A stretch of 64,000 nt of DNA, taken from the NCBI GenBank assembly GCA_903860975.1, contig CAIOSI010000021.1, positions 1 to 64,000 of the forward strand, written 5' to 3'. The translations under genes were made by a program, and so were the position numbers. The DNA is from an uncultured Alphaproteobacteria bacterium. Lineage in GTDB: Bacteria > Pseudomonadota > Alphaproteobacteria > Caulobacterales > Caulobacteraceae. Shown one piece after another: positions 40,188 to 44,307 of the stretch (position 1 is its first letter; every line of letters begins with the position of its first letter). The notes under the pieces were generated by a model that saw nothing but the letters and a program-made list of their open reading frames with translations, was not told the origin of the DNA and ran no database searches.

Positions 40188-40201
40188 TTGATCAAGATCA
40201 C
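40188..40201. promoter_or_regulatory. FNR/FixK-like box TTGAT-CAAG-ATCAC between divergent genes
   Basis: One mismatch from TTGAT-N4-ATCAA; centre 41.5 nt from the 40236 ATG and about 54 nt from the 40140 start. Confidence 0.65.
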
Positions 40202-40235
40202 GGCGGGCCTTTGAACCGCGCTCCACGGTGGCGGC

Positions 40236-41792
40236 ATGAAGAACGCGACCGCCCTTGACACCGCCAGCGTCCCGGCAAGCCCGCTGGCTGAGGGCCCGCC
40301 GCGACGGCTCATTGCGCGTCGTCTGCCGCTCAATACCTTCCGAGAGAACGTCATCGTCCTGGCGCGCGACAGCGTTGCCCTGCGCCCGGAACGGCTGGCC
40401 GGCGTGCGCAAGGTCGAGGTGCGGGCGGGTGGACGAACCCTGCTGGCCTCACCTATCATCTGCGATGACCCGACGATGGTCGGTCCCTTTGATGTCGGCC
40501 TGCCTGAACCTGCATTCCATCGCCTGGGGGTGGCGGCCGGCGAGGCCGTCGACCTGACGCCGGCGCGCAGACCTCGCACGCTCGATGCACTCCGCGCCAA
40601 GATCGCTGGTGAGGCCCTGAACGCCTTCGACTATGCTGAGATCGCTCAGGATCTCGCGGCGCACCGATGGTCTGACATGGAGATCGCCGCCTTCCTGGTG
40701 GCCTGCGCGAGTTTCATGACGCCCGAAGAAACCCTGTGGCTTTGCCGCGGGATGGTGTCGGCTGGTCATCAGCTGCATTGGCCGCGTGGTTTGGTGGTCG
40801 ACAAGCACTGCATCGGCGGGATCCCAGGCAATCGGACCTCGCTGATCGTCACCCCGATCGTCGCGGCCCACGGCCTCTTGATGCCGAAGACCTCATCGCG
40901 GGCGATCACTTCGCCGGCAGGGACTGCCGACACGATGGAGGTGCTGGCTCGCGTCGACCTGGACGAGGAAGAGATGCGTGCGGTGGTCGAGACTTGCGGC
41001 GCTTGCATTATCTGGGGTGGCCGCGTCGATCTCTCCCCGGCTGACGACGTGCTCATTTCAGTGGAGAGGCCACTGGGCGTCGACACGCCGGAACAGATGG
41101 TGGCGTCGATTCTGTCGAAGAAGGTCGCCGCAGGCTCGAGCCACCTCGTGCTGGACGTGCCGGTAGGGCCCAGCGCCAAGGTCCATGACCGGCGCGCCGC
41201 CCTAAGGCTCAAGACGTTGTTCGAATATGTCGCTGGCCGCCTCGGTCTTTCGATCGATGTCGTTTTGTCCGATGGCCGCCAGCCTGTTGGACGCGGCGTC
41301 GGTCCCGTCCTGGAAGCCCGCGATGTGTGCGCTGTTCTGGAGAACCGCCCCGATGCACCTGCAGACCTGCGCGAAAAGGCTATCCGCTTAGCCGGTCGCC
41401 TCTTGGAACAGGATCCTGCCTTGGCGGGTGGGATGGGCGAACGGCGGGCGCGTGAGCTGCTGGAGGGGGGTGCGGCTGGGCGCAAGATGGAGGAGATCAT
41501 AGCCGCGCAAGGGCCCTCGCGGGTAAGTCGCACCCTAGGCGGCTTGATCTGCGAAATCGTTGCGCCGCGCGCCGGCACGATCGCTGCGATCGATTGCCTT
41601 CGCCTCGCATCGGTGGCGCGGCTTGCCGGCGCGCCGACCGATCCCGGTGCAGGCCTTGATCTTCTAGCCCGCATCGGCGACCCGGTGCAGGCGGGTCAGC
41701 CGCTTTATCGAATTCATGCCTCCGAACCCTCAGACTTTGCGTTCGCCTCCGAAATGGCGGGCGAGCGCAGCGGCGTGGATCTCGCAAGGTGA
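40236..41792 (+). CDS. Thymidine phosphorylase/NMP (AMP) phosphorylase family, archaeal-type
   Basis: KHCIGGIPGNRTSLIVTPIVAAHGLLMPKTSSRAITSPAGTADTMEVLARVDL. Confidence 0.9.
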   Translation: MKNATALDTASVPASPLAEGPPRRLIARRLPLNTFRENVIVLARDSVALRPERLAGVRKVEVRAGGRTLLASPIICDDPTMVGPFDVGLPEPAFHRLGVAAGEAVDLTPARRPRTLDALRAKIAGEALNAFDYAEIAQDLAAHRWSDMEIAAFLVACASFMTPEETLWLCRGMVSAGHQLHWPRGLVVDKHCIGGIPGNRTSLIVTPIVAAHGLLMPKTSSRAITSPAGTADTMEVLARVDLDEEEMRAVVETCGACIIWGGRVDLSPADDVLISVERPLGVDTPEQMVASILSKKVAAGSSHLVLDVPVGPSAKVHDRRAALRLKTLFEYVAGRLGLSIDVVLSDGRQPVGRGVGPVLEARDVCAVLENRPDAPADLREKAIRLAGRLLEQDPALAGGMGERRARELLEGGAAGRKMEEIIAAQGPSRVSRTLGGLICEIVAPRAGTIAAIDCLRLASVARLAGAPTDPGAGLDLLARIGDPVQAGQPLYRIHASEPSDFAFASEMAGERSGVDLAR

Positions 41793-42685
41793 ACTGCGCG
41801 ATCTACGCCTTCGACGACGACGGCGTCTCGGCCGGGCGGCTAGCGGACCTTCTAGAGGCGCCCTTGCGAACGATCAGCCTGCACACTTTGCCCGATGGCG
41901 AGAGCCTGCCGGTGGTGCCTAAGCCTGTTTCAACCGCCTTGCTCTACCGCGCCCTCAACCGGCCCGACTGCAAACTGATGCCGCTCCTGCTGGCGGCAGA
42001 CGCCCTACGCCGGGCTGGCGCACAACGCGTCGTGCTGGTTGCACCCTACATGCCCTATTTACGCCAGGACGCGGTTTTTTCCCCAGGCCAGCCGCTGAGC
42101 CGCGATGTCATAGGCCTTGTGCTGGGGCGAGCCTTCGACCGGGTGGTCACCGTCGAGCCGCACCTTCACCGCACCGTCGATCTCACGCGGGTCTTTGCCG
42201 GGACGCCGGTCACGGCACTTTCTGCGGCCGGGCTTCTGGCGCAACATATCGGCCAGCTCCACGGTCCCGTTATCATTGGGCCGGACGCCGAGTCCGAGCC
42301 CTGGGTGCGGCGCATCGCCGAGGACCTCCAAGCGCCCTACCTGGTTGGCCAAAAGATCCGGCAAGGCGACCGTAAAGTCGATATCACCTTCAGCTCAAAG
42401 GCTTCGGTCCTCGGCCGGCGCGCCGTAATCGTCGACGACATCTGTTCGACGGGTGCAACCCTACTCGCAGCGACCCGCCGCCTGCGGGCGGCCGGTGCGG
42501 GAACGATAGAGATCGTCGTCGTCCACGCCCTTTCGGGGCTGGCACTTGGCGCGGCCTTGCGGCGAGCCGGGGCCGGTACGCTGACCGCCACCGATTCCTG
42601 CACCCATCGCGCCAACCAAATCGTCCTCGCACCGTTGCTTGCGCACGCCCTTTCGTCGGAGATCGAACAATGCCCCTCAAGCTGA
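41789..42685 (+). CDS. Ribose-phosphate pyrophosphokinase (PRPP synthetase)-like protein
   Basis: VAPYMPYLRQDAVFSPGQPLS; PRPP loop AVIVDDICSTGATL; GTGA overlap with the upstream gene. Confidence 0.88.
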   Translation: MNCAIYAFDDDGVSAGRLADLLEAPLRTISLHTLPDGESLPVVPKPVSTALLYRALNRPDCKLMPLLLAADALRRAGAQRVVLVAPYMPYLRQDAVFSPGQPLSRDVIGLVLGRAFDRVVTVEPHLHRTVDLTRVFAGTPVTALSAAGLLAQHIGQLHGPVIIGPDAESEPWVRRIAEDLQAPYLVGQKIRQGDRKVDITFSSKASVLGRRAVIVDDICSTGATLLAATRRLRAAGAGTIEIVVVHALSGLALGAALRRAGAGTLTATDSCTHRANQIVLAPLLAHALSSEIEQCPSS

Positions 42686-44307
42686 CCTTTCACGGCGCCG
42701 CGAGCTGTGTCACCGGCTTTTGCGCCCTGCTTGAGACCGAACACGCGCGACTGCTGATCGACTGCGGCATGTTCCAGGGCTCCAAGACCCTGAAGGCCTT
42801 GAACTACGGCGACTTCCCTTTTGATGCCTCGTCAATTGATGCCGTCCTGCTGACCCACGCCCATATCGACCATTCTGGCCTCCTGCCAAAGCTCATGAAG
42901 GCGGGCTTCCGAGGACCCATCCACGCCACGGCCGGCACCCGCGATCTGTGTGAAATCATGCTGGCGGATTCGGCCAGCATCCAGGAGAGCGAGGTCCGCC
43001 AGCTGAACCGCCGCAACCAACGGCGAGGACGAGCCGAGGTGAGGCCCATTTACACCGTGCGGGACGCCGCGCGCTGCCTCGAGCAGTTCTCCAAGGTGAA
43101 GCTTGGTGAGCCCCTCAAGGTCGCGCCAGGCGTCACCGCCATCTTTTGGGAGGCTGGCCACATCCTCGGCTCTACCTCGATCGAGATCCGCGTCGAGACC
43201 GCTGAAGGCGTGGAGATCCTGCTCTTCTCCGGCGACCTTGGACCCGGTGGCCGGGAGTATGCGCCAGATCCGCAAGGCCCAGCTGGCGTCGACTACCTGA
43301 TCATGGAGTCCACCTATGGCGATCGTGAGCGCAGGGACCTGGAGGGCGAGGCGCGACGCGCGCTGCTGGCCAAGGAACTGAACGACGCCCATCGGGCTGG
43401 CGGTCCCTTACTGATTCCCGCCTTCGCGGTGGAGCGTTTGCAGGAACTGTTGGCCGACATCTTGACCCTGATGGAAGAGCGTCAGGCACCGTCATCCGAC
43501 ATCTTCCTGGACTCGCCCCTTGCAATCGAGGCGACAGAGATCTTCCAGCGGCGTGGATGGAACCATGCCACGGGGTCCAATCCCTTCGCTCATCTGGTCA
43601 ACACAGGTCGCCTCAAGTTCCTTCGTGAGCCCGGTGAGAGCGACCGGCTCGAAACCCTAGCCGGCTGGCACATCATCTTAGCTGCCAGCGGCATGTGCGA
43701 CGCCGGACGGGTTCGCAAGCACCTGAAGCGCTTGCTTTGGCGTCGGCAGGCGACGGTGCTGCTCTCGGGGTATCAGGCCGCAGGCACCCTAGGGCGTATC
43801 CTCCAGGAGGGCGCCGAGCGGGTCAGCATCCAGGGCGAGGACATCATGGTCCACGCCCGCATCCGCGCGCTTGATGCCTATTCCGGCCACGCCGACGCGC
43901 CGCGTCTGGTGGCCTGGGCTAAACAACGTGGGCCGGTCACGGGTGGCATCTTCCTGGCGCATGGCGAGCCGGCGTCCCTCGAGGGCCTGAAGTCGCGTCT
44001 GGCGGCGGCAGGCGTGCCCTCAGACCAAATCCGTATTCCCGCAATGGACGAGGGCTTCCGTCTGGCCAAGGCCGGCGCAATGCCTGCGACCCGTAGCGTC
44101 AAGCGGATTGCACCCGACGCTGCGGCCCGGGCCGACTGGCATAACGCCCGCGCCCAGCTACTGATGACCCTCAATCAGCGGCTGGAATCTGCGCCTGACG
44201 ACCGGGCGCGCGAACGGCTCATCGCACAGCTCGCCGGTGTGCTGCGCGTCCAGTCCCCTTCGGACCAGACGATCGCATCGCGCGTCCAGGCCGCAGCGCT
44301 GATCTGA
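42670..44307 (+). CDS. Metallo-beta-lactamase/beta-CASP ribonuclease-like protein
   Basis: LTHAHIDHSGLLPKL; GHILGSTSIEI; FSGDLG; ASGMCDAGRVRKHL; YSGHAD. Confidence 0.92.
   Translation: MPLKLTFHGAASCVTGFCALLETEHARLLIDCGMFQGSKTLKALNYGDFPFDASSIDAVLLTHAHIDHSGLLPKLMKAGFRGPIHATAGTRDLCEIMLADSASIQESEVRQLNRRNQRRGRAEVRPIYTVRDAARCLEQFSKVKLGEPLKVAPGVTAIFWEAGHILGSTSIEIRVETAEGVEILLFSGDLGPGGREYAPDPQGPAGVDYLIMESTYGDRERRDLEGEARRALLAKELNDAHRAGGPLLIPAFAVERLQELLADILTLMEERQAPSSDIFLDSPLAIEATEIFQRRGWNHATGSNPFAHLVNTGRLKFLREPGESDRLETLAGWHIILAASGMCDAGRVRKHLKRLLWRRQATVLLSGYQAAGTLGRILQEGAERVSIQGEDIMVHARIRALDAYSGHADAPRLVAWAKQRGPVTGGIFLAHGEPASLEGLKSRLAAAGVPSDQIRIPAMDEGFRLAKAGAMPATRSVKRIAPDAAARADWHNARAQLLMTLNQRLESAPDDRARERLIAQLAGVLRVQSPSDQTIASRVQAAALI

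What the first reader, a model, noticed from the sequence alone, without database searches (positions are those of the whole stretch)
40188..44307. NMP/thymidine phosphorylase - PRPP-synthetase-like - beta-CASP nuclease operon behind an FNR/FixK box
Seen: three overlapping genes (GTGA overlap at 41789-41792; 16-nt overlap at 42670-42685) encode an archaeal-type thymidine/AMP phosphorylase homolog, a PRPP synthetase homolog with an intact PRPP loop, and an MBL beta-CASP protein. Known: archaeal AMP phosphorylases make ribose-1,5-bisphosphate from NMPs, and beta-CASP proteins include RNases. Inference: the operon could form an RNA-degradation and ribose-phosphate salvage path (RNA to NMP to base plus ribose-1,5-bisphosphate or PRPP) induced under oxygen limitation. 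No Rubisco or ribose-1,5-bisphosphate isomerase is visible in the window, so the fate of the sugar phosphate is open.
Basis: partly seen in the sequence, partly recalled or inferred. Interest (0 to 1): 0.8.

Follow-up and report, generated by a model that had tools for sequence, protein, structure and literature searches.

The report
Low-oxygen RNA-ribose salvage operon
Three linked genes in a soil/water bacterium (Phenylobacterium) probably break RNA nucleotides down to bases and ribose phosphates when oxygen runs short; the gene set is widely conserved and is already known to be oxygen-controlled in a soybean symbiont, but nobody seems to have worked out what it does.

Summary
Three overlapping genes encode an archaeal-type NMP/thymidine phosphorylase (TP), a second PRPP-synthetase-like protein (Prs-like) and a TTHA0252-like beta-CASP nuclease, behind a one-mismatch FixK box (40188-40201) and inside a FixK/FixLJ/Usp neighbourhood. 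It is not chance. In 100 genomes of the order, TP and the Prs-like paralogue occur together in 28 genomes and apart in 2 (p = 1.7e-22). Across the phylum sample, 28 of 30 TP loci have Prs-like directly downstream, with several gene orders. Published data on the Bradyrhizobium diazoefficiens orthologous operon (bll3117-bll3116-bll3115) already show microoxic induction and FixK2 dependence, so the regulation is known while the pathway is not. New here: (a) the Prs-like family keeps the ATP site, R5P site and catalytic Lys/Arg but has replaced the universal pyrophosphate-loop DxGG by DxES; (b) a divergent phosphoketolase, and often acetate kinase, sits beside TP in every order-sample genome that carries a full-length copy of that phosphoketolase (7 of 7); (c) an archaeal locus clusters beta-CASP, RuBisCO III and AMP phosphorylase; (d) the host genome lacks RuBisCO and R15P isomerase. 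Most likely function: oxygen-limitation-induced RNA/NMP degradation with ribose-phosphate recovery. NMP specificity and Prs-like chemistry are untested.

The parts
40188..40201 (+). FixK/FNR-type box TTGATCAAGATCAC (1 mismatch); centre 41.5 bp upstream of the TP ATG
   Evidence: same spacing in L005 and L006
40236..41792 (+). NMP/thymidine phosphorylase, archaeal type (TP), 518 aa
41789..42685 (+). PRPP-synthetase-like protein (PRK07199 group) with a DxES pyrophosphate loop, 298 aa
42670..44307 (+). beta-CASP metallo-beta-lactamase protein, TTHA0252-like, with RMMBL domain and all MBL and beta-CASP motifs, 545 aa
39517..40140 (-). flavodoxin-fold NAD(P)H oxidoreductase, divergent from TP
38803..39486 (-). 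FixK-type CRP/FNR regulator (no N-terminal Fe-S cysteines; ETVSR recognition helix)
   Evidence: below the curated FixK cut-off
37862..38731 (-). universal stress protein
   Evidence: recurrent neighbour
44396..44409 (+). perfect FixK-type palindrome TTGATCCAAATCAA upstream of the kinase gene
44480..45187 (+). HATPase-domain histidine kinase
45209..45580 (-). single-domain receiver (FixT/FixJ-like)
45662..46267 (-). FixJ response regulator (upstream part of the ORF is probably not translated; start inferred)
   Evidence: residues 107-303 of the ORF match FixJ, over cut-off
46260..48128 (-). FixL-like sensor kinase with a haem-PAS-type signature

Best explanation
The operon is an oxygen-limitation module for breaking down RNA-derived nucleotides and keeping the ribose. 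FixLJ-FixK activates it. The beta-CASP protein degrades RNA towards mononucleotides. The phosphorylase splits NMP + Pi into base + ribose-1,5-bisphosphate. The Prs-like enzyme handles the activated ribose phosphate, either as a nucleotide-linked phosphotransferase (R15P or PRPP plus AMP/ADP to R5P plus ADP/ATP) or by making PRPP from it. The R5P then enters the pentose phosphate pathway, and in relatives the adjacent phosphoketolase and acetate kinase could take it on to acetyl phosphate and ATP. Shown: gene content and order, co-conservation, the box, active-site conservation, and regulation in B. diazoefficiens (published). Inferred: the three enzyme activities and the carbon flow.
For: Co-occurrence of TP and Prs-like (28 both, 1 and 1 alone, 70 neither), with an extra canonical Prs in the host genome and in nearly all sampled genomes. 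28 of 30 phylum loci have Prs-like directly after TP. MBL is within 8 kb in 29 of 33 order loci, in several gene orders. The orthologous operon is induced in microoxia at RNA and protein level and falls 6.6-fold (TP) and 30.6-fold (MBL) in a fixK2 mutant, which also lowers phosphoketolase and acetate kinase (PMC6515984, PMC9104804). Divergent phosphoketolase lies within 5 kb of TP in 7 of 7 genomes with a full-length copy. TP shares the AMP-phosphorylase active-site segments GG(I/V)PGN(K/R)T and PKTSSRAITSxAGTAD, unlike thymidine phosphorylase. An archaeal beta-CASP - RuBisCO III - AMP phosphorylase run supports the RNA-to-NMP link. Catalytic motifs of Prs-like and MBL are intact.
Against: TP scores below the curated AMP-phosphorylase cut-off (445 against 535 bits), and the genome shows no other full member of its phosphorylase family, so it might be the nucleoside phosphorylase. 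The Prs-like PP loop differs from every known PRPP synthase checked, so its reaction is unknown. The host genome lacks phosphoketolase and acetate kinase. Outside the order, 12 of 25 class loci have TP without either partner within 8 kb. FixK boxes near TP are not universal.
Confidence: 0.5

Rival explanations
1. Plain nucleoside salvage: TP is a true thymidine/pyrimidine nucleoside phosphorylase and Prs-like is an ordinary second PRPP synthase that supplies PRPP to reuse the bases.
For: NCBIfam names both so; pyrimidine-contacting Arg, Ser and Lys are kept (residue roles from general knowledge); only one strong member of the phosphorylase family is found in the genome.
Against: Sequence is far closer to AMP phosphorylase than to thymidine phosphorylase (310 against 118 bits); the Prs-like PP loop is remodelled throughout its group; a canonical Prs is already present; an RNase-like partner is not explained.
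Confidence: 0.18
2. R15P-to-PRPP salvage: Prs-like is an R15P kinase (PhnN-like chemistry), so NMP is turned into base plus PRPP and the bases are reloaded as needed, balancing nucleotide pools rather than feeding catabolism.
For: R5P- and ATP-binding motifs and catalytic Lys/Arg kept while the loop around the C1 phosphates is changed (site roles from general knowledge); TP and Prs-like are the tightest pair.
Against: This genome already has a PhnN, although in a phosphonate cluster; the phosphoketolase/acetate kinase link points to catabolism.
Confidence: 0.2
3. Regulatory stress cassette: beta-CASP RNase trims mRNA or rRNA under stress, and TP and Prs-like are merely co-inherited cargo of stress islands.
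For: Neighbours include Usp, Hsp20, FtsH, P-type ATPases and plasmid-borne stress clusters.
Against: TP and Prs-like stay adjacent across the phylum and through rearrangements, which cargo status does not predict.
Confidence: 0.12

Closest known systems
Bradyrhizobium diazoefficiens operon bll3117-bll3116-bll3115 (FixK2 regulon)
   Same: Same three genes in the same order, FixK2 box upstream, microoxic induction (PMC6515984, PMC9104804)
   Different: Orthology is inferred from annotation and gene order; no function was assigned; here the operon sits next to fixLJ/fixK itself
Archaeal NMP shunt / pentose bisphosphate pathway (AMP phosphorylase - R15P isomerase - RuBisCO III)
   Same: Homologous phosphorylase with the same active-site segments; a Woesearchaeota locus adds a beta-CASP gene
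   Different: No R15P isomerase or RuBisCO in this genome; a Prs-like paralogue is the partner instead
PRPP synthase (Prs; PRK07199 group)
   Same: Fold (TM 0.87-0.92 to T. volcanium Prs), ATP site, R5P loop, catalytic Lys and Arg
   Different: PP loop DxGG/DxGA is replaced by DxES; an extra paralogue, not the housekeeping enzyme
TTHA0252 ribonuclease (bacterial beta-CASP/CPSF-like)
   Same: Best solved relative (201 bits), all metal and beta-CASP motifs, RMMBL domain
   Different: Longer C-terminal extension; operon context

Membership tests
NF003338/TIGR02645 archaeal-type phosphorylase | score over curated cut-off (434/434.6 bits) | tested here: met
   646/585 bits
AMP phosphorylase (TIGR03327) | score over curated cut-off 535 bits | tested here: not met
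   444.9 bits
AMP phosphorylase (TIGR03327) | AMP-phosphorylase active-site segments as opposed to thymidine phosphorylase | tested here: met
   alignment with 4ga5 and with a RuBisCO III-linked archaeal enzyme
AMP phosphorylase (TIGR03327) | NMP + Pi to base + R15P | not testable with these tools
   needs enzyme assay
archaeal NMP shunt | R15P isomerase and RuBisCO in the genome | tested here: not met
   no match in the genome
PRPP synthase | fold, ATP site (PDGE, RQD), R5P loop, catalytic Lys and Arg | tested here: met
PRPP synthase | pyrophosphate-binding loop DxGG/DxGA | tested here: not met
   DxES: E in 51/52 and S in 48/52 sequences; the same in homologues
PRK07199 subfamily (NF005537) | score over curated cut-off 322 bits | tested here: not met
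   303 bits (close below)
beta-CASP ribonuclease | HxHxDH and MBL motifs, beta-CASP motifs A-C, RMMBL | tested here: met
beta-CASP ribonuclease | RNase activity | not testable with these tools
   needs assay
FixK regulon | FixK box at the promoter | tested here: met
   one mismatch, spacing conserved in three species
FixK regulon | FixK-dependent expression in this organism | not tested
   shown only for the B. diazoefficiens operon (PMC9104804)

The most novel reading that the evidence does not exclude
A bacterial, RuBisCO-free NMP-degradation pathway in which a remodelled PRPP-synthase homologue converts ribose-1,5-bisphosphate (a new phosphotransfer reaction, for example R15P + AMP/ADP to R5P + ADP/ATP), letting oxygen-starved cells burn their RNA ribose, in relatives through phosphoketolase and acetate kinase.
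Probability: 0.25. Interest if true: 0.85.

Novelty: new variant of a known kind. Interest (0 to 1): 0.62.

Why it matters
If right, proteobacteria carry a counterpart of the archaeal NMP shunt that needs no RuBisCO and is switched on by low oxygen. It would make RNA an internal carbon and energy reserve under anoxia and would give a function to a widespread, FixK-controlled but unexplained operon, including in soybean bradyrhizobia. It also points to a new enzyme activity in the PRPP synthase family, testable with three purified proteins.

Tried and rejected
Anti-phage defence: PADLOC gave only weak phosphoribosyltransferase-domain matches to the Prs-like protein; the Cas14 similarity of the MBL protein is far below the curated cut-off. 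RuBisCO/R15P isomerase route in this genome: absent. Classical phosphoketolase model (XFP_N at E <= 1e-30) missed the divergent family, which was found with a protein query instead. Universal FixK box upstream of all TP operons: not supported. PhnN as a dedicated partner: its gene lies in a phosphonate cluster. Literature for a named pathway around the triad: none found in the open-access library.
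Full report
Observation. The genome is 3.83 Mb and 99.95% complete; the closest named relatives are Phenylobacterium. TP matches NF003338/TIGR02645 well over the cut-offs but stays below TIGR03327 AMP_phos (444.9 against 535 bits). The second gene is a PRPP-synthetase homologue of the PRK07199 group. The third is a beta-CASP protein whose closest solved relative is RNase TTHA0252.

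Surroundings. On the other strand lie a flavodoxin-fold oxidoreductase, a FixK-type regulator and a universal stress protein; downstream come a histidine kinase, a receiver protein, FixJ (over its curated cut-off) and a FixL-like sensor with a haem-PAS-type signature. The same layout (Usp, CRP, TP-PRS-MBL, FixJ, FixL) is kept in relatives L005 and L006. The window has 9 FixK-type sites with at most one mismatch against 3.6 expected, three of them perfect at 44396, 48971 and 50212.

The box. TTGATCAAGATCAC is one mismatch from consensus. In L005 and L006 the box is TTGATCGAGATCAC and TTGATCGAAATCAC, at exactly the same distance from the ATG, although the DNA between has diverged. L006 shows no oxidoreductase match between the regulator and TP, so the box is unlikely to be kept only for that gene. 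The centre lies 41.5 bp before the A of the ATG, which would fit a class II activator site with a leaderless or nearly leaderless transcript (inference). Across other loci, only 9 of 31 TP-first and 2 of 26 MBL-first operons have a site with at most one mismatch, so FixK control is a property of some lineages.

Co-conservation. In 100 genomes of the order, 29 have TP and 29 have a PRK07199-like protein above 250 bits; 28 are the same genomes (Fisher p = 1.7e-22; genomes are related, so this overstates independence). Nearly all genomes also carry a lower-scoring canonical Prs, confirmed for the host genome. In order loci, Prs-like is within 8 kb of TP in 32 of 33 and MBL in 29 of 33, in the orders MBL-TP-PRS (18), TP-PRS-MBL (8), TP-PRS with MBL inverted (2) and PRS-MBL-TP (1). 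Across the phylum sample, 28 of 30 TP loci have Prs-like directly downstream (a few of these loci are also in the order sample). Named examples: Acidovorax and Phenylobacterium zucineum MBL-TP-PRS, Ralstonia Hsp20-MBL-PRS-DUF1488-TP, Bradyrhizobium septentrionale Usp-TP-PRS-MBL, Azospirillum TP-MBL. Outside the order, 12 of 25 class loci have TP with neither partner within 8 kb, so the triad is common, not universal.

Published regulation. In B. diazoefficiens, MBL (bll3115), Prs (bll3116) and TP (bll3117) all rise in microoxia in protein (log2 2.9, 4.4, 2.1) and transcript (15.4-, 7.7-, 5.1-fold) (PMC6515984 Table 2). In a fixK2 deletion bll3117 falls 6.6-fold and bll3115 30.6-fold; the paper lists a box at -74 (ATGATCTGGGTCAA) and the operon bll3117-bll3116-bll3115; phosphoketolase and acetate kinase bll2518-bll2517 are in the same table (PMC9104804 Table 2). 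In Rhodopseudomonas palustris a putative phosphoketolase is among the FixK targets (PMC3050613).

Chemistry. TP shares HCIGGIPGNRT, PKTSSRAITSPAGTAD and the WGG/PADD segments with T. kodakarensis AMP phosphorylase and with a Woesearchaeota enzyme encoded next to RuBisCO III, and differs there from human thymidine phosphorylase. The T. kodakarensis enzyme accepts all natural NMPs (PMC8376864). This makes NMP use plausible but does not prove it. Prs-like keeps PDGE, RQD, the R5P loop and the catalytic Lys184 and Arg186 in 52 of 52 sequences (Gln88 in 51), but where PRPP synthases have DxGG or DxGA it has DxES (Glu 51/52, Ser 48/52), and so do metagenomic homologues. The model is confident (pLDDT 91) and matches PRPP synthases from the PDB (TM 0.8-0.9). 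That loop holds the pyrophosphate part of PRPP in known enzymes (general knowledge), so a changed reaction at C1 is an attractive, untested idea.

Fate of the sugar. This genome has no R15P isomerase, RuBisCO, phosphoketolase of either type or PRK07058-type acetate kinase. It has PhnN, an R15P kinase, but inside a phosphonate cluster. In other genomes of the order, a divergent phosphoketolase (XFP domains) occurs full-length in 7 of 100, always within 5 kb of TP, and acetate kinase is a recurrent neighbour. With FixK control of phosphoketolase/acetate kinase in Bradyrhizobium, this points to catabolism of the ribose to acetyl phosphate where those genes exist; in the present organism the pentose phosphate pathway is the likely sink (inference).

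Independent hint. Woesearchaeota locus L020 encodes, in order, a beta-CASP protein, type III RuBisCO, an AMP phosphorylase (over the curated cut-off) and an R15P-isomerase-like protein (below its cut-off). It is one locus, but it links a beta-CASP nuclease to the archaeal NMP pathway.

Verdict. Real, conserved, regulated as proposed in at least one relative, and functionally unassigned. Best reading: RNA/NMP breakdown with ribose-phosphate recovery in oxygen limitation, confidence 0.5. The enzyme activities remain to be measured.

Noticed in passing
44396-44409, 48971-48984, 50212-50225: Three perfect FixK-type palindromes; the last precedes genes for a HiPIP-like protein and cytochrome-like proteins, suggesting a wider low-oxygen island.
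   Followed up: partly
L020:3-5494 (DASH01000016.1, Woesearchaeota): beta-CASP protein, RuBisCO III, AMP phosphorylase and R15P-isomerase-like genes in a row.
   Followed up: partly
L013/L059 and six other order-sample loci: Divergent phosphoketolase family, annotated by NCBI as 'xylulose 5-phosphate 3-epimerase', next to TP.
   Followed up: partly
L012, L018, L059 and about 10 more loci: A MacA/LolCE-like ABC exporter set (ATPase, FtsX-like permease, membrane fusion protein) recurs downstream of TP-PRS.
   Followed up: no
16326-18872: Cation-transporting P-type ATPase, a family that is also a recurrent neighbour of TP in 17 loci.
   Followed up: no
40236-40300: The first 22-24 residues of TP are not conserved; a leaderless transcript or a later start is possible.
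   Followed up: partly
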